The notes under the pieces: model-generated
Seen by the model: the letters and a program-made list of their open reading frames with translations, nothing else
Databases searched by the model: none
What the model was told of the DNA's origin: nothing
Translations under genes and position numbers: made by a program
Part shown: piece after piece, positions 39,051 to 52,497 of the stretch
Numbering within the stretch: the stretch's first letter is position 1
How the letters are laid out: every line of letters starts with the position of its first letter
DNA from: Pseudomonas xionganensis
Lineage (GTDB): Bacteria > Pseudomonadota > Gammaproteobacteria > Pseudomonadales > Pseudomonadaceae
Assembly (NCBI RefSeq): GCF_009763245.1
Contig: NZ_WKJZ01000001.1
Coordinates: forward strand, 434,001 to 498,000
Direction of reading: 5' to 3'
Length of the DNA: 64,000 bases

Positions 39051-39632
39051 TTAGACCTGTTGTGGGTTGCGTCTGGCGTGCCCATCCAGCAAACGCTGGA
39101 ACAGTTGTGGGTCGCCCCATTCCTGGCGGATGCGCTCGGCGAAGACAATCTGCCCCAGCTCGAACGCGACCATACGCGGGTTGTAGGCATCCTCGCGAAA
39201 GCACTGGGCGTAGCCGGTGTCGGTTTCGTGGGCGATCACCGAGTGCAGGCGCACGTCCTGTTCGCCGTTGACCATCTCGGTGAGCTGCAGCAGGCCGTCC
39301 ACCAGGCAGAAGATCACCCGCGAGAACTGCTCGGCGCTGGGTGATACCGGCAGGCTGATCCAGCGCTCGGAAAAGCGCTGGCAGCTGGCGATATAGTCGG
39401 CGTCGTCGCCATCCCAGAAGGTCACGGCGTGGTCGAAGGCGTCGATCAGGTCGCGCACATCGCCCTTGAGCAGGCCGAAGTCATAGACCATCTGGCCGTT
39501 ATCCAGGGCATGGGCCTCCAGCAATACTTCTATCTTGTAGGAATGGCCATGCAGCGAGCGCGAACAGAGCCGGCTGCTGCAGCCGCGCACGATATGCGCG
39601 CTCTCGAACTTGAACAGCTTGCGGATCAGCAT
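39051..39632 (-). CDS. queD2: 6-carboxy/6-pyruvoyl-tetrahydropterin synthase paralogue QueD2
   Basis: A 193-residue T-fold enzyme. The zinc-binding His residues lie in FESAHIV and SLHGHSY, with the catalytic Cys in LCSRSLHGH and the later DTGYAQC region. The [20 protein letters not shown] motif is conserved in the family. It is longer than the roughly 120-residue housekeeping QueD, like the QueD2 group that follows Zur control. It would feed queuosine or pterin synthesis. It is the last gene of the leftward zinc operon and overlaps thrS2 by 7 bases. Confidence 0.85.
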
Positions 39633-41551
39633 GGCGGCTCCTGACCGGGCATGCGCGCCTCAGTGCTCAGCCGCTCGACCAGATCATTGAGCGTCAGGCT
39701 GCCGAGGTTGTCGCCGGCGCGGCTGCGCAGGGTGACGCAGCCTTCGGCCTTTTCCTGCTCGCCGATCACCAGTAGGTAGGGCACTTTCTGCAGGGTGGCT
39801 TCGCGAATCTTGTAGCCGATCTTCTCGTTGCGCAGGTCCGCCGCCGCACGCAAACCGGCGCGCTTTAGGCGGGCCAGCACCTGGCGGGCATAGTCGTTCT
39901 GCCCTTCGCTGATGGTCAGCACGGCGGCCTGCTGCGGCGCCAGCCACAGCGGGAACAGGCCGCTGTAGTGCTCGATAAGTATGCCGGTGAAGCGCTCCAG
40001 TGAGCCGAACAGGGCGCGGTGCAGCATCACCGGGCGTTCGCGTTCGCCCTGCTCGTTGACGTAGCTGATATCGAAGCGCTCGGGCAGGTTGAGGTCCACC
40101 TGCAGGGTGCCGCACTGCCAGTCGCGGCCGATGGCGTCGCGCAGGACGAATTCCAGCTTGGGCCCGTAGAAGGCGCCTTCGCCGGGGTTGAGCTGGTAGT
40201 CGATGTTCATCCGTTGCAGTGCGCCGGACAGCGCGCCTTCCAGTTGATCCCAGGTGGCGTCGCTGCCGATGCGGTTGGCCGGGCGGGTGGAGAGCTTGAC
40301 CGCCACCTCGTTGAAGCCGAAGTCGCGGTAGATGGCGAACACCAGGGCGATGGTGTCGGCGCACTCCTGCTCCATCTGCGCGGCGGTGCAGAAGATGTGC
40401 GCGTCGTCCTGGGTGAAGTGGCGCACGCGCAACAGGCCGTGCAGTGCGCCGGAGGGCTCGTAGCGGTGCACCTTGCCGAACTCGGCCATACGCAGCGGCA
40501 GGTCGCGGTAGCTCTTCAGGCCACGGGCGAACAGCGCCACGGCGCCGGGGCAGTTCATCGGCTTGAGGGCGAACACGCGCTCGTCCTCGGTGCTGGTGGT
40601 GAACATGGCCTCGCGGTAGTTGAACCAGTGCCCGGAGGTTTCCCACAGGCTGCGGTCCATCACGTCCGGGGTGTTGACCTCGACATAGCCGGCGGCGTCC
40701 TGCTGCTGGCGCATGTAGCCGATCAACTGCTGGAACAGGGTCCAGCCCTTGGGGTGCCAGAACACCGAGCCCGGGGCGCAGTCGTCGAAATGGAACAGGT
40801 CGAGCTGCGGGCCGAGCTTGCGGTGGTCGCGCTTGCCGGCTTCTTCCAGGTGGGTCAGATAAGCCTTGAGTTCCTTCGGCGTGGCCCAGCAGGTGCCGTA
40901 GATGCGCTGCAGCGCAGCGTTCTTCGCATCGCCGCGCCAGTAGGCACCGGCCACCTTGGTCAGCTTGAACGCCTGCAGATGGCCGGTGCGCGGAATATGC
41001 GGGCCGCGGCAGAGGTCTTCGAACTCGCCCTGGCGGTACAGCGACAGCACTTCGCCGGCCGGAATGTCGCGGATCAGCTCGGCCTTGTAGTGCTCGCCCT
41101 GGGCTTCGAAGTGGGCGATGGCGGCGTCGCGTGGCAGCTCGCGGCGGCTGACCGGCAGGTCGGCGGCGGCCAGCTCGGTCATGCGCGCCTCGATCAGCGC
41201 CAGGTCATCCGGGGTGAAGGGGCGTTCGAAGGCGAAGTCGTAGTAGAAGCCGTCCTCGATCACCGGGCCGATGGTCACCTGGGCGCTGGGGTACAGCTGC
41301 TTGACCGCCATGGCCAGCAGGTGCGCGCAGGAGTGGCGCAGCAGCTCCACGCCCTCGGGGTCGCGCGCGGTGATCAGGCTGAGCTGGGCGTCGTTTTCGA
41401 TCAGTGCGCTGGTGTCCACCAGGCGGCCATCCAGGCGGCCGGCCAATGCGGCCTTGGCCAGGCCGGGGCCGATATCGGCGGCCACCTCGGCGACGCTCAG
41501 GGGCTGGGGATACTGACGCTGGCTGCCGTCGGGCAGGGTAATGCTGGGCAT
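39626..41551 (-). CDS. thrS2: Threonyl-tRNA synthetase paralogue (ThrRS2)
   Basis: A 641-residue class II synthetase. Domains: TGS (1-60), second additional/editing domain with the [10 protein letters not shown] motif (about 72-81), catalytic core (about 240-535) and anticodon-binding domain (about 540-635). The catalytic zinc ligands appear intact: Cys in LKPMNCPGA, His in DDAHIF and His in [11 protein letters not shown]. ThrRS paralogues under Zur are known in other bacteria, presumably to raise the pool when zinc is low. The housekeeping thrS would be elsewhere (with infC). It lies 35 bases after pyrC2. Confidence 0.92.
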
Positions 41552-41586: not shown

Positions 41587-42927
41587 TCAGCCGCGCTGGT
41601 AGCGCAGCGGCAGCCCCTGGCAATCGTTGTGCAGCTGGCCTTCGTGCCAGGCCAGCTGGCCGGAGACGACGGTGCTGCGCACGGCATGGCGGAAGGCGCG
41701 GTCCTGGAAGGGTGTCCAGCCGCAGTGGGCGAGGATCGGGTCGGCGGCAACCGGGCGTGGCTCGGCCAGGCGTTCGATCAGGCACAGGTCGGCCCAGTAG
41801 CCTTCGCGCAGGTAGCCGCGCTGCTCGATGGCAAAGCGCTGTGCCACGGCGTGGCTGGTTTTCTCCACCAGGGTGGTGAGGGGCAGCTGGCCGTCGGCCA
41901 CCAGCTCCAGCAGGGATGGCAGGGCGTGCTGTACCAGCGGCAGGCCGGAGGGCGCCTGCAGGTAGGGCCGCTGCTTCTCCTCCAGGGTATGTGGCGCGTG
42001 GTCGGTGCCAATGATATCCAGCCGGCCGCAGAGCAGGGCCTGGCGCAGCGCGTCGCGGTCGGCCTGGGTCTTGATCGCCGGGTTGCACTTGATCAGGTGG
42101 CCCAGCGCCGCGTAGTCGCGGTCATCGAAATACAGGTGATGGGCGCAGACCTCGGCGGTGATCTGCTTGCCGGCCAGCGGGCCCGGCTGGAACAGGCTCA
42201 GCTCGCGGGCGGTGGTGATGTGCAGCACGTGCAACTGGGTATCGAAGCGCCGCGCCAGGCTCACGGCCAGGCTGGAGGACTGGTAGCAGGCCTCGGCATC
42301 GCGGATCAGCGGGTGCTGGTCGGCCGGGATCTGCTCGCCGTACTGCGCCTGCCACTGCTGTTCACGTTCGCGGATGCGTGGGGTGTATTCGCAATGGGTC
42401 AGCAGAATGGTGGGGCAGTCGCGGAACAACCGCTCCAGCGAGGGCAGGTCGTCGACCAGCATATTGCCGGTGCTGGCGCCCATGAACACCTTCACCGCCG
42501 CCACCCGGTTGGGGGCCAGTGCGGCGACGATGTCGAGGTTTTCCTGGCTGACGCCGAAGTGAAAACCATAGTTGGCCATGGAGCAGTTGGCCGCGCGCCG
42601 CTCCTTGGCTTCTAGTGCTTCCAGGGTCAGGGTCGGCGGGTTGGTGTTGGGCATGTCCATCACGCTGGTGATACCGCCGGCCACCGCCGCGCGGGATTCC
42701 GTGGCGAAGCTGCCTTTGTGCGGTGCGCCGGGGTCACGGAAGTGCACCTGATCGTCGATCATGCCCGGCAGCAGGTACTGCCCGGCGGCGTCGATCTCAA
42801 CCTTGGCATTTATGCCGCTCAGGCTGCTGGCGATGGTTTCGATGCGGCCGTGGCGCACCAGCAGGTCGGCGTCGAATTCGCGGCCTTCGTTGACCAGGCG
42901 GGCGTTGCGAATCAGCAGATCAGTCAT
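41587..42927 (-). CDS. pyrC2: Dihydroorotase paralogue PyrC2
   Basis: A 446-residue amidohydrolase of the pyrimidine pathway. The first metal motif, normally HxH, reads [11 protein letters not shown], so one His is Gln. The other ligands are present: Lys in VAAVKVFMG (carboxylated lysine), His in LLTHCEYTP, His in LHVLHITTA and Asp in GTDHAPH. The Q-for-H form is shared by a known dihydroorotase branch and may need fewer metals. PyrC2 replaces the zinc-dependent enzyme under zinc starvation in pseudomonads (established knowledge). It overlaps yidD2 by 8 bases. Confidence 0.92.
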
Positions 42928-43165
42928 GGGGATGTTCCTGATTGCAGCGATGGATGGGCGGCACCGGGTCGTAGCCGCCCGGATGCCAGGGGTGGCAGCG
43001 CAACAAGCGGCGCACGGCCAGCCAGCTGCCGCGCCATGCGCCGTGGGTTTGCAGCGCTTCGATGGCGTAGTGCGAACAGCTGGGGTGGAAGCGGCAGCGT
43101 GGCCCGAGCAATGGGCTGATCAGGTACTGGTAGAGCCGCACCAGGCTCAGTAGCAGGCTTTTCAT
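42920..43165 (-). CDS. yidD2: YidD-family membrane-insertion factor paralogue
   Basis: An 81-residue protein with an amphipathic N-terminal helix ([19 protein letters not shown]) followed by the YidD core: [19 protein letters not shown], then [17 protein letters not shown]. Cys24, Cys30 and Cys57 with nearby His27, His32 and His58 could form a metal site. YidD normally sits between rnpA and yidC near the origin and helps YidC insert membrane proteins. This copy is instead embedded in the zinc-response operon, overlapping hisI2 (ATGA) and pyrC2 (8 bases), so it is probably an extra copy used in zinc shortage. That role is inference. Confidence 0.9.
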
Positions 43166-44448: not shown

Positions 44449-45315
44449 TTATGGTGCTGGAGATAAACGGGGTGGGCGGCGCAGCAGCCCATTTTGTGGG
44501 CCGAACACGACGGAGCTGATGTAGGCCAGGCCGGCGAGCAGCACGATGCACGGGCCGCTCGGCAGGTTGGCGTAGTAGGACAGCAGCAGACCGAGCCAGA
44601 CGCAGCTCGCGCCGATGCCGGCGGCGAGCAGTAACAAGCGCGGCAGGTGACGGCTCCAGAAGCGGGCGGCGGCGGCTGGCAGCATCATCAGGCCGACCAC
44701 CATCAGCGCGCCGATGGCCTGAAAACCGACCACCAGGTTGAGCACCACCAGGGCGAGAAACAGCCCGTAGGCCAGCGGCCCGAAGCGGCTGACCCCGGCG
44801 AGAAACAGCGGGTCGAGGCTGTCCAGCAGCAACCAGCGGTAGATCAGGGCGAGCAGCAGCAGGCTGCCGATGGACACCAGCAGCATGCCGTTCAGGGTTG
44901 GCGGGTCCACGGCCAGCACCGAGCCGAACAGCAGGTGCAGCAGATCCAGCTTGTTGCCGGCCAGGCCCAGCAGCAATACACCGCTGGCCAGGGAGATCGG
45001 GTAAATGGCAGCCAGGCTGGCGTCTTCGCGCAGGCCGGTGCGCCGCGTCACCCAGGCGGCCAGCCCGGCCATGCCCAGGCCGGCGACCAGGCCACCCAGG
45101 GTCAGCGCCGGCAGGCTCAGGCCATACAGCCAGAAGCCCAGCGCCGCGCCAGGCAGGATGCCGTGGGCGATGGCGTCACCCATCAGGCTTAAACGCCGCA
45201 ACTGCAGAAACACACCCAGTGGTGCCGCACTGATCGCCAGGGCCGCGCCGCCCAGCAGGGCGCGGCGCATAAAGGCGAAATCGACAAAGGGGCTCCACAG
45301 CAGCTCCAGGCTCAC
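44449..45315 (-). CDS. Metal ABC transporter permease (ZnuB-like)
   Basis: A 288-residue membrane protein with about eight hydrophobic segments, of the ABC-3 family for zinc/manganese. The signature RRLSLMGDAIAHGILPGAAL (about 40-59) is present, as is the segment IGALMVVGLMMLPAAAARFW. It overlaps the ATPase gene by four bases (ATGA) and precedes the binding-protein gene by 10 bases, so the transporter is complete. Confidence 0.93.
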   Translation of the reverse strand: MSLELLWSPFVDFAFMRRALLGGAALAISAAPLGVFLQLRRLSLMGDAIAHGILPGAALGFWLYGLSLPALTLGGLVAGLGMAGLAAWVTRRTGLREDASLAAIYPISLASGVLLLGLAGNKLDLLHLLFGSVLAVDPPTLNGMLLVSIGSLLLLALIYRWLLLDSLDPLFLAGVSRFGPLAYGLFLALVVLNLVVGFQAIGALMVVGLMMLPAAAARFWSRHLPRLLLLAAGIGASCVWLGLLLSYYANLPSGPCIVLLAGLAYISSVVFGPQNGLLRRPPRLSPAP

Positions 45316-46907: not shown

Positions 46908-46922
46908 TGTTATGTTATAACA
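46908..46922. promoter_or_regulatory. Zur-like operator shared by the divergent zinc operons
   Basis: TGTTATGTTATAACA is a perfect 6-bp inverted repeat with a 3-base centre, flanked by AA and AT (AATGTTATGTTATAACAATT). It matches the proteobacterial Zur consensus GTTATANTATAAC closely. It is nearly centred in the 76-base gap, 31 bases before folE2 and 30 before dksA2, so one repressor dimer could close both promoters. Confidence 0.85.
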
Positions 46923-51531: not shown

Positions 51532-52497
51532 ATGTTGAAAAATATCCCGACCCACCTGATCGCCGGCCCCCTGGGTGCCGGCAAGACCAGCCTGATCCAC
51601 CACCTGCTGGCGCAGCGGCCGGCCCATGAGCGCTGGGCGGTGTTGATCAACGAATTTGGCCAGATCGGCCTGGACGCGGCCCTGCTGACCACGGACGACG
51701 AGGGTTTCGCCCTGGGCGAGGTGGCCGGCGGCTGTCTGTGCTGCATCAACGGTGTGCCCTTTCAGGTTGGCCTCGGCCGGTTGCTGCGCCAGGCCAAACC
51801 GGATCGCCTGCTGATTGAGCCGTCCGGGTTGGGTCACCCTCAGCAACTCCTGAGGCAGCTGCGTCAGCCGCCCTGGGCCGGGGTGCTGGCGGTGCAGCCG
51901 CTGGTGCTGGTGCTGGATGCCCAGACCCTGGCTGCCGGCCAGGCCCTGCCGGACAGCCAGCAGGCCTGTCTGGGCGAAGCCGGGCTCTTGCTGCTGAACA
52001 AGGCCGAAGGGCTGAGTGAGGCGGACAAGGCGCGTATCCAGCGCCAGCTGCCGCCTGTGCCGCAGCGCTGGACCAGCCAGGGCCAGTTGCCGCTTGCAGA
52101 GCTGCCGGGCCTGGAGGCCCAGGTCGAGCCGGGTGCCGATCCTGACACGCTTCCCGAAGCGTCTGCGCCTTTGCCGCAGCTGTGGCATCGCGTTGACCAG
52201 CCGATCTGCCAGGTGCAGGCCCAGGCCGAGGGCTGGAGCATTGGCTGGCGCTGGCACCCCGATCAGCGCTTCGATATGGCGCGGGTGCAGCAGTGGCTGG
52301 CCAGTCTGCCCTGGCGCCGGGCCAAGCTGGTGCTGCACACGGAGCAGGGCTGGCAGTTGGCCAATGCCCTCGCCGATCAGCCGCTTGCCTGGCAGCCCAG
52401 CCTCTGGCGCAAGGACTCGCGGTTGGAGCTGATCTTCGCCGAGGCCCAGGATCAGGCGGCGTTGCAGGCGGGCATGCTGCGCTGTCTACTGGCCTGA
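51532..52497 (+). CDS. Second COG0523 / CobW-like GTPase
   Basis: A 321-residue G3E GTPase, shorter and divergent from the one at 47390. Walker A is GPLGAGKTSLI, the metal motif is GGCLCCING, followed by LLIEPSGLGHP, and base recognition NKAE. The C-terminal domain is abbreviated but present. No Zur-like box is seen upstream, so its metal and control may differ; the YjiA or CobW branches are alternatives. It starts a short rightward unit with the hydrolase 46 bases downstream. Confidence 0.88.
   Translation: MLKNIPTHLIAGPLGAGKTSLIHHLLAQRPAHERWAVLINEFGQIGLDAALLTTDDEGFALGEVAGGCLCCINGVPFQVGLGRLLRQAKPDRLLIEPSGLGHPQQLLRQLRQPPWAGVLAVQPLVLVLDAQTLAAGQALPDSQQACLGEAGLLLLNKAEGLSEADKARIQRQLPPVPQRWTSQGQLPLAELPGLEAQVEPGADPDTLPEASAPLPQLWHRVDQPICQVQAQAEGWSIGWRWHPDQRFDMARVQQWLASLPWRRAKLVLHTEQGWQLANALADQPLAWQPSLWRKDSRLELIFAEAQDQAALQAGMLRCLLA

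What the first reader, a model, noticed from the sequence alone, without database searches (positions are those of the whole stretch)
42920..43165. YidD paralogue embedded in a zinc-response operon
Seen: a complete 81-residue YidD-family gene overlaps hisI2 (ATGA) and pyrC2 (8 bases). It keeps Cys24, Cys30 and Cys57 with His27, His32 and His58. Known: YidD normally sits at rnpA-yidC near the origin and assists membrane insertion. Inference: either YidD function depends on a metal and this copy serves in zinc shortage, or membrane insertion of the zinc importer needs an extra factor. I do not recall YidD being described as part of a zinc response.
Basis: partly seen in the sequence, partly recalled or inferred. 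Interest (0 to 1): 0.72.

Follow-up and report, generated by a model that had tools for sequence, protein, structure and literature searches.

The report
Zinc-starvation spare copy of YidD
A small protein thought to help insert proteins into the bacterial membrane has a second gene copy wired into the zinc-shortage response, in several different gene arrangements, which suggests that this poorly understood protein itself depends on a metal.

Summary
Window 42920-43165 (minus strand) encodes a complete 81-residue YidD (PF01809, 116 bits) inside a nine-gene run folE2-znuCBA-hisI2-yidD2-pyrC2-thrS2-queD2. A Zur-type operator (46908-46922) heads the run; it is one of two such sites (2 mismatches or fewer) in the genome, the other heading a zrgA gene. 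The canonical yidD lies at rnpA-yidC, 51 kb away. Neither refuting condition holds. I found zinc-cluster yidD in 20 genomes, in five arrangements (hisI2-yidD2-pyrC2, cysS2-yidD2, folE2-yidD2, hisI2-yidD2-zigA, fur/zur-pyrC-hisI-yidD). A mercury-resistance element carries a hisI-yidD pair. In one genome the rnpA-yidC copy has lost all three conserved cysteines, leaving the zinc-operon copy as the only intact YidD. These copies keep Cys24/Cys30/Cys57, invariant in all YidDs compared, and most add a Cys/His-rich tail missing from canonical Pseudomonadaceae copies. Best reading: a Zur-controlled backup of a metal- or thiol-dependent YidD. The rival, insertion of the zinc importer, is weaker: 11 of 20 runs hold no znu gene. 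Searches of the held literature found no YidD in a zinc response. Metal binding and zinc-dependent expression are untested here.

The parts
42920..43165 (-). yidD2, 81 aa, YidD family; Cys24, Cys30, Cys57, His58 kept; C-terminal tail [11 protein letters not shown] rich in Cys/His
   Evidence: PF01809 116.2 bits; 74-90% identical to 8 zinc-cluster copies of Pseudomonas with the same tail type; pN/pS 0.31 over 45 pairs of 10 such copies
46908..46922 (.). Zur-type operator, TGTTATAACATAACA on the minus strand, between folE2 and dksA2
   Evidence: 1 mismatch to TGTTATANTATAACA; its inner 14 bases match the published Pseudomonas consensus GWWAYWNNNTWHCR exactly; 2 places in the whole genome
45980..46876 (-). 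folE2 (GTP cyclohydrolase IB), first gene of the run
   Evidence: PF02649
45312..45983 (-). znuC, ATPase of the zinc importer
   Evidence: PF00005; overlaps folE2 by 4 bases
44449..45315 (-). znuB, permease of the zinc importer
   Evidence: PF00950
43566..44438 (-). znuA, zinc-binding protein
   Evidence: PF01297
43162..43569 (-). hisI2, second phosphoribosyl-AMP cyclohydrolase
   Evidence: PF01502; the genome has another hisI at C1:965171
41587..42927 (-). pyrC2, dihydroorotase-type amidohydrolase
   Evidence: PF01979; name by position and by Haas et al. 2009
39626..41551 (-). thrS2, threonyl-tRNA synthetase
   Evidence: PF00587, PF03129, PF07973, PF02824
39051..39632 (-). queD2, 6-pyruvoyl-tetrahydropterin synthase family, last gene of the run
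   Evidence: PF01242
46953..47375 (+). dksA2, divergent from folE2 across the operator
   Evidence: PF21157, PF01258
47390..48598 (+). zigA, COG0523 metal-chaperone GTPase
   Evidence: PF02492, PF07683
48598..49242 (+). DUF1826 gene following zigA
   Evidence: PF08856

Best explanation
yidD2 is a Zur-controlled spare copy of YidD. Shown: it is a real, selected YidD gene in a zinc-starvation run behind a Zur-type operator, and the placement recurs with different neighbours and an operator in front. Inferred: when zinc is scarce Zur lets go and yidD2 is made together with the other replacement proteins (FolE2, HisI2, PyrC2, ThrS2, QueD2, DksA2). Inferred: YidD needs a metal, or free reduced thiols that a metal normally guards, at its invariant Cys24/Cys30/Cys57(-His58) set, so that the standing YidD pool made from rnpA-yidD-yidC fails in zinc shortage; YidD2 restores YidD activity, with its Cys/His-rich tail helping it to get or hold metal, perhaps handed over by the co-regulated COG0523 protein ZigA. 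It is not a cysteine-less (C-minus) replacement.
For: Two yidD genes in the genome, the second at rnpA-yidD-yidC-mnmE. Genus survey with PF01809: 199 of 199 genomes have yidD; 15 have two or more matches; 10 have a copy in a zinc cluster. Of the 15 extra copies over the cut-off in those genomes, 10 lie in zinc clusters, 1 in a mercury locus, 4 elsewhere; with a zinc cluster taken as 0.3% of a genome (my assumption) the binomial chance is 2e-22, ignoring relatedness. 20 genomes in all, five arrangements: hisI2-yidD2-pyrC2; cysS2-yidD2 followed by queD2, thrS2, gamma-carbonic anhydrase or another gene; folE2-yidD2; hisI2-yidD2-zigA; FUR-family gene-pyrC-hisI-yidD. An operator with 2 mismatches or fewer stands in front of the run in 18 of 20; 0 such sites in 67 comparison loci, 1.05 Mb. 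Fifteen of the 20 genomes were checked and also have yidD at rnpA-yidC. Sole-copy cases: in G262 the rnpA-yidC gene has C24R, C30H, C57S and no Pfam match, and G262 has 1 YidD, in a folE2-znuCBA-hisI2-yidD2 run behind an operator. Invariant cysteines. Purifying selection. hisI-yidD beside merD in mercury loci, as expected if both products are targets of thiol metals. One ORF with YidD and COG0523 domains joined in frame.
Against: No metal-binding or expression data. Haas et al. note that several Zur-regulated paralogues keep their zinc sites, so copy number alone could be the point. The tail contrast is strong only against canonical Pseudomonadaceae copies (57 of 235 tail residues Cys/His against 9 of 360); against other canonical copies it is weak (35 of 254), and some copies outside zinc clusters have such tails (P. 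luteola group 2 of 3 with two or more; L222). AlphaFold2 gave mean pLDDT 54, so no metal site could be inspected. The trait is sporadic: 10 of 199 genomes of the genus. In G041 yidD2 is decaying (Cys30 to Gly) in an otherwise kept run.
Confidence: 0.58

Rival explanations
1. Extra YidD is needed to insert the zinc importer: derepression makes much ZnuB (or another Zur-controlled membrane protein) and YidD2 keeps membrane insertion efficient.
For: yidD2 is in one run with znuB in 9 of 20 genomes, the window's included. YidD is listed as a factor cross-linked to nascent membrane proteins (PMC8082313, passage). The mercury locus that carries hisI-yidD also encodes the membrane protein MerT.
Against: 11 of 20 runs that hold yidD2 contain no znu gene; in G334 znuCBA-hisI2 is a separate run with its own operator while yidD2 goes with folE2-cysS2. 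The usual partners are soluble enzymes. It does not explain the invariant cysteines or the tail. A znuB elsewhere in those genomes could still be served, so this is not excluded.
Confidence: 0.18
3. YidD2 has taken up a new job as a small zinc- or thiol-metal-binding peptide (buffer or hand-over partner of ZigA) and no longer assists insertion.
For: Cys/His-rich tail; YidD and ZigA joined in one 485-residue ORF in a Halothiobacillus MAG, behind an exact operator match.
Against: In G262 it is the only intact YidD, which argues that it still does YidD's work, unless G262 does without. The family core is conserved. The fusion is in one MAG (no second copy in the other 23 of 27 genomes of its group that had a match) and zigA keeps its own ribosome site there.
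Confidence: 0.08
4. Passenger: yidD2 came in by chance with an acquired zinc island and has no zinc role.
For: Patchy occurrence (10 of 199 genomes); the canonical Pseudomonadaceae YidDs form a clade (28 rows, support 99/96) that excludes every zinc-cluster copy, so this is not a recent duplicate of the resident gene; one decayed copy (G041).
Against: Five arrangements with different neighbours, purifying selection, and the sole-copy case.
Confidence: 0.03

Closest known systems
YidD (PF01809), putative membrane protein insertion efficiency factor, rnpA-yidD-yidC locus
   Same: Whole-length family match, same length (81 aa) as YidD1 of the same genome, invariant Cys24/Cys30/Cys57 and nearly invariant His58.
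   Different: In a zinc-starvation run instead of rnpA-yidC; outside the clade of canonical Pseudomonadaceae YidDs; His27 and His32; Cys/His-rich tail in place of the SRSSSMAE-type tail.
Zur-regulated paralogues of zinc proteins (HisI, PyrC, Cam, HemB, CysRS, ThrRS, AmiA, QueD, DksA; Haas et al. 2009, PMC2770081, passages)
   Same: Same clusters, same operator, second copy of a housekeeping gene; like HisI2, ThrS2 and QueD2 it keeps its candidate metal ligands.
   Different: YidD is not among the nine families listed there and is not known to me as a zinc protein or an enzyme.
C-minus paralogues (RpmE2, RpmJ2, DksA2; review PMC10393844, passages)
   Same: Backup copy in a zinc-starvation regulon.
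   Different: The cysteines are kept, so it is not a C-minus protein.

Membership tests
YidD family (PF01809) | Significant whole-domain match to the family model | tested here: met
   116.2 bits, profile 2-67 of 67
YidD family (PF01809) | Invariant cysteines 24, 30, 57 | tested here: met
   Present; 57 of 57 aligned YidDs have them
YidD family (PF01809) | Location rpmH-rnpA-yidD-yidC (canonical copy) | tested here: not met
   This copy is between hisI2 and pyrC2; the canonical place is filled by the other copy. So it is a paralogue, not the canonical gene
YidD family (PF01809) | Assists insertion of membrane proteins | not testable with these tools
   Needs experiment; the G262 sole-copy case is indirect support
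Zur regulon member | Zur operator in front of the transcription unit | tested here: met
   46908-46922; run of nine genes on one strand with overlaps or gaps of 35 bases or less; a single transcript is inferred
Zur regulon member | Zur present in the genome | tested here: met
   Two FUR-family matches; the one at C1:567194 lies just before an ORF that looks like znuC by eye
Zur regulon member | Expression rises in zinc shortage or in a zur mutant | not testable with these tools
   No expression data for this organism
C-minus paralogue | Loss of the metal-binding cysteines of the housekeeping copy | tested here: not met
   All three invariant cysteines kept
Zinc protein | Binds zinc through conserved residues | not testable with these tools
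   No solved YidD found by sequence; predicted model of mean pLDDT 54 is unusable

The most novel reading that the evidence does not exclude
YidD, in general and not only this copy, is a metal- or thiol-metal-dependent protein, so that a step of membrane-protein insertion is zinc-sensitive in bacteria; zinc-starved cells replace it with a Zur-driven form that carries a Cys/His tail and is loaded by the COG0523 chaperone ZigA, and mercury-resistance elements carry the same hisI-yidD pair because both products are mercury targets.
Probability: 0.35. Interest if true: 0.86.

Novelty: new variant of a known kind. Interest (0 to 1): 0.72.

Why it matters
What YidD does chemically is not known, although nearly all bacteria sampled here have it and its three cysteines do not vary. 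Its repeated placement in zinc-starvation operons gives the first concrete hint (that I could find) of a cofactor, and simple tests: measure metal in YidD and look for an insertion defect in zinc-starved cells that lack yidD2. It would also add membrane-protein insertion to the list of processes (translation, stringent control, folate, queuosine, pyrimidine and histidine synthesis) that bacteria provide for in zinc shortage.

Tried and rejected
Not counted as zinc-linked: Lysobacterales dksA | yidD-pyrC (L115, L134, L144, L201; no operator in L115, L134, L144, where the best sites have 5 to 6 mismatches); P. luteola group (L213-L215, no operator within 2 mismatches); L125 (divergent from a znu-like gene, no operator); L216, L220, L221 and L223 (no yidC or rnpA nearby and no operator; L223 is convergent with folE2). 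L225 (G609) is counted although no operator within 3 mismatches was found and the Fur-family gene at its head (PF01475) is not shown to be Zur; without it the counts are 19 genomes, 18 with an operator and 10 without znu.

Structure: AlphaFold2 mean pLDDT 54, so no fold search was run. Phylogeny: 81 columns for 93 rows; the number of origins of zinc-cluster YidD is unresolved (8 label changes on the tree, one origin not ruled out). In that survey only 30 loci plus the extra copies were opened; single-copy genomes were not each checked for rnpA-yidC. One search showed second YidD matches in G259, G320 and G321 that I did not place: opened one copy each for G320 and G321, and both were the rnpA-yidC copies.

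Full report
What is there. The frame at 43165-42920 on the minus strand is a complete YidD (81 aa, PF01809 116.2 bits). It overlaps hisI2 by 4 bases and pyrC2 by 8. Together they form a nine-gene run on one strand, folE2-znuC-znuB-znuA-hisI2-yidD2-pyrC2-thrS2-queD2 (46876 to 39051), with overlaps or gaps of at most 35 bases (families). dksA2, zigA (COG0523) and a DUF1826 gene run the other way. Between folE2 and dksA2 lies TGTTATGTTATAACA (46908-46922). It is the only site within 3 mismatches of TGTTATANTATAACA in the window (0.12 expected). Its inner 14 bases match the consensus GWWAYWNNNTWHCR quoted in a Pseudomonas review (PMC10393844, passage; checks). In the whole genome (3,958,707 bases) there are two places with 2 mismatches or fewer, none for the reversed pattern. 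The second stands in front of a His-rich gene that Pfam names ZrgA, a zinc uptake family (184 bits). The 15-base pattern itself is my rendering of the gammaproteobacterial Zur motif from memory.

The other yidD. The genome has two YidD genes. The second lies in rnpA-yidD-yidC-mnmE, 51 kb away. hisI also has a second copy in the genome.

Conservation of the association. In a survey of the genus with the family model, 199 of 199 genomes have yidD and 15 have two or more matches. Opening the extra copies put 10 of them in zinc clusters, 1 in a mercury locus (G063), 4 elsewhere (distant, about 40% identical: G020, G051, G140, G182) and 2 below the cut-off (G063, G191). They are G000 (the window), G187, G069, G154 (= Pseudomonas sp. 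HMWF032), G109, Pseudomonas sp. GOM6, Pseudomonas sp. HAR-UPW-AIA-41, G177 (= P. alcaliphila), G307 (= P. sediminis), G063, G078, Pseudomonas sp. PA15(2017), G157 (= Pseudomonas sp. S37), G041, G211, G262, G334, a Halothiobacillus MAG, a gammaproteobacterial MAG (Super_Day12_Bin.14) and G609.

The neighbours differ. hisI2-yidD2-pyrC2 stands in nine, with znuCBA (window, G187, G069, G154, G109, GOM6, HAR-UPW-AIA-41) or without (G177, G307). hisI2-yidD2 after znuA ends the recognised run in G262 and is followed by a carbonic-anhydrase-like gene in G041. folE2-yidD2 alone: G063, G078. cysS2-yidD2 then queD2, thrS2, a carbonic-anhydrase-like gene or an oxidoreductase: PA15, S37, the gamma MAG, G211, G334 (CysS in G211 by Pfam; the carbonic anhydrase is named by eye, Pfam gives only hexapeptide repeats). 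hisI2-yidD2-zigA: Halothiobacillus. A FUR-family gene, pyrC, hisI, yidD: G609. An operator with at most 2 mismatches stands in front of the run in 18 of 20. The two exceptions are S37, with 3 mismatches in front and 2 at its separate hisI2-pyrC2 run, and G609. In 67 comparison loci (1.05 Mb) there are none with at most 2 mismatches and 4 with 3. Eleven of the 20 runs have no znu gene in them (in G334 a separate znu run lies close by). Fifteen of the 20 genomes were checked and also hold yidD at rnpA-yidC; three were not checked (GOM6, HAR-UPW-AIA-41, PA15); two lack it (next paragraph).

Two genomes with one YidD. In G262 the only YidD is the one in folE2-znuCBA-hisI2-yidD2, behind an operator with 1 mismatch. 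Its rnpA-yidC gap still holds an 81-codon open frame, 29 of 81 residues identical to our YidD1, with all three cysteines replaced (C24R, C30H, C57S) and no Pfam match. There the zinc-operon copy is the only intact YidD, which suggests that it can do YidD's work. In G609 the only YidD is in the fur/zur-pyrC-hisI-yidD run and no yidD was found between rnpA and yidC. No operator was found there, so this case is weaker.

Mercury. Among 66 plasmid records with a YidD match, eight Pseudomonas plasmids share one at the same identity. The two opened (P. putida p12969-2 and a P. aeruginosa plasmid) carry merR-merTPA-merG-merB-merD-hisI-yidD, then a sufE gene the other way. An identical block is in G063. 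This is one element spread around, not several events. G702, a genome of the same order, has hisI-yidD and sufE at 76, 83 and 85% identity without mer genes in 16 kb. The pair hisI-yidD thus occurs both in zinc clusters and in a mercury locus. I read this as both proteins being sensitive to loss or displacement of a thiol-bound metal; that is inference.

The protein. Cys24, Cys30 and Cys57 do not vary in any of the YidDs compared. In the 19 intact zinc-cluster copies, 57 of 235 residues after the DPVP motif are Cys or His (14 of 19 have two or more), against 9 of 360 in 30 canonical Pseudomonadaceae copies (0 of 30) and 35 of 254 in 37 other canonical copies (9 of 37). The difference within the family is striking. 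The P. luteola group's extra yidD, which has no operator, also has such a tail. pN/pS is 0.31 for 10 zinc-cluster copies and 0.22 for 10 canonical ones. In the tree the canonical Pseudomonadaceae copies form a supported clade (28 rows, 99/96) without any zinc-cluster copy, so yidD2 is not a recent duplicate of yidD1. Whether zinc-cluster YidDs have one origin is unresolved. In the Halothiobacillus MAG the yidD frame runs without a stop into zigA, giving one ORF with both domains (485 aa), behind an exact operator match in front of hisI2. zigA keeps a good ribosome site and ATG. It was seen in this one MAG only, so it may be a real fusion or a lost stop. No solved YidD structure was found by sequence and the predicted model is too poor to use.

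What is known. Haas et al. 2009 (PMC2770081, passages) list nine families of zinc-protein paralogues in such clusters and note that several keep their zinc ligands; YidD is not among them (0 occurrences). The reviews PMC6103462 and PMC10393844 have 0 occurrences of yidD. Literature searches: YidD with Zur, Zur regulon with Pseudomonas, pyrC2 and hisI, membrane protein insertion efficiency with zinc, YidD (40 of 104 listed), merD with hisI, COG0759, YidD with mercury, Zur regulon with membrane protein insertion. By titles and starts of abstracts none deals with YidD in a zinc or mercury response. The library lacks most subscription papers; Lim et al. 2013 was not read, and Yu et al. 2011, the main YidD paper, is not held. 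YidD's role is taken from a table entry in PMC8082313 and from recall.

Judgement. That yidD2 is a member of a Zur-type zinc operon, kept by selection, is close to certain from sequence (about 0.93). That it replaces a YidD which is itself metal- or thiol-dependent is the best explanation (0.58), ahead of service to the zinc importer (0.18), plain dosage (0.13), a new metal-handling job (0.08) and a passenger (0.03).

Noticed in passing
L141:6441-7243; L145:5441-6243; L207:6319-7118: A mercury-resistance locus on Pseudomonas plasmids and in G063 carries a hisI-yidD pair after merD, followed by a sufE gene on the other strand.
   Followed up: partly
L228 (G262), minus strand 2809-2570: The gene between rnpA and yidC is a full-length open frame that has lost all three YidD cysteines; the only intact YidD of that genome is in its zinc operon.
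   Followed up: yes
L081:9001-10455: YidD and COG0523 (zigA) read as one 485-residue ORF in a Halothiobacillus MAG, downstream of hisI2 and an exact Zur-type operator match.
   Followed up: partly
L213:7527-7781, L214:7487-7741, L215: P. luteola group: a second, stand-alone yidD with a Cys/His-rich tail next to what look by eye like curli genes, no operator.
   Followed up: no
L143:4956-5870: Enterococcus faecium plasmid pVEF3 has yidD directly followed by trxA and a rhodanese gene, after fetB: another thiol-related neighbourhood.
   Followed up: no
L115, L134, L144, L201: Lysobacterales: yidD sits between dksA and a pyrC close to PyrC2 (54-56% in L115, L134 and L201), away from yidC, without a Zur-type operator in the three checked.
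   Followed up: partly
L209:9782-9976 (G041): A zinc-cluster yidD2 in decay (Cys30 to Gly and other core changes) between hisI2 and a carbonic-anhydrase-like gene.
   Followed up: no
L210, L211, L212, L054: Distant YidD-like genes (about 40% identical, still with three cysteines) in four Pseudomonas genomes, not in zinc clusters.
   Followed up: no
window 51532-52497: A second COG0523 gene (PF02492) downstream of the zinc cluster; homologues keep this place in many of the related loci.
   Followed up: no
L263:1542-2162 (G000:C3): The genome's only other Zur-type site stands in front of a ZrgA-family gene.
   Followed up: yes
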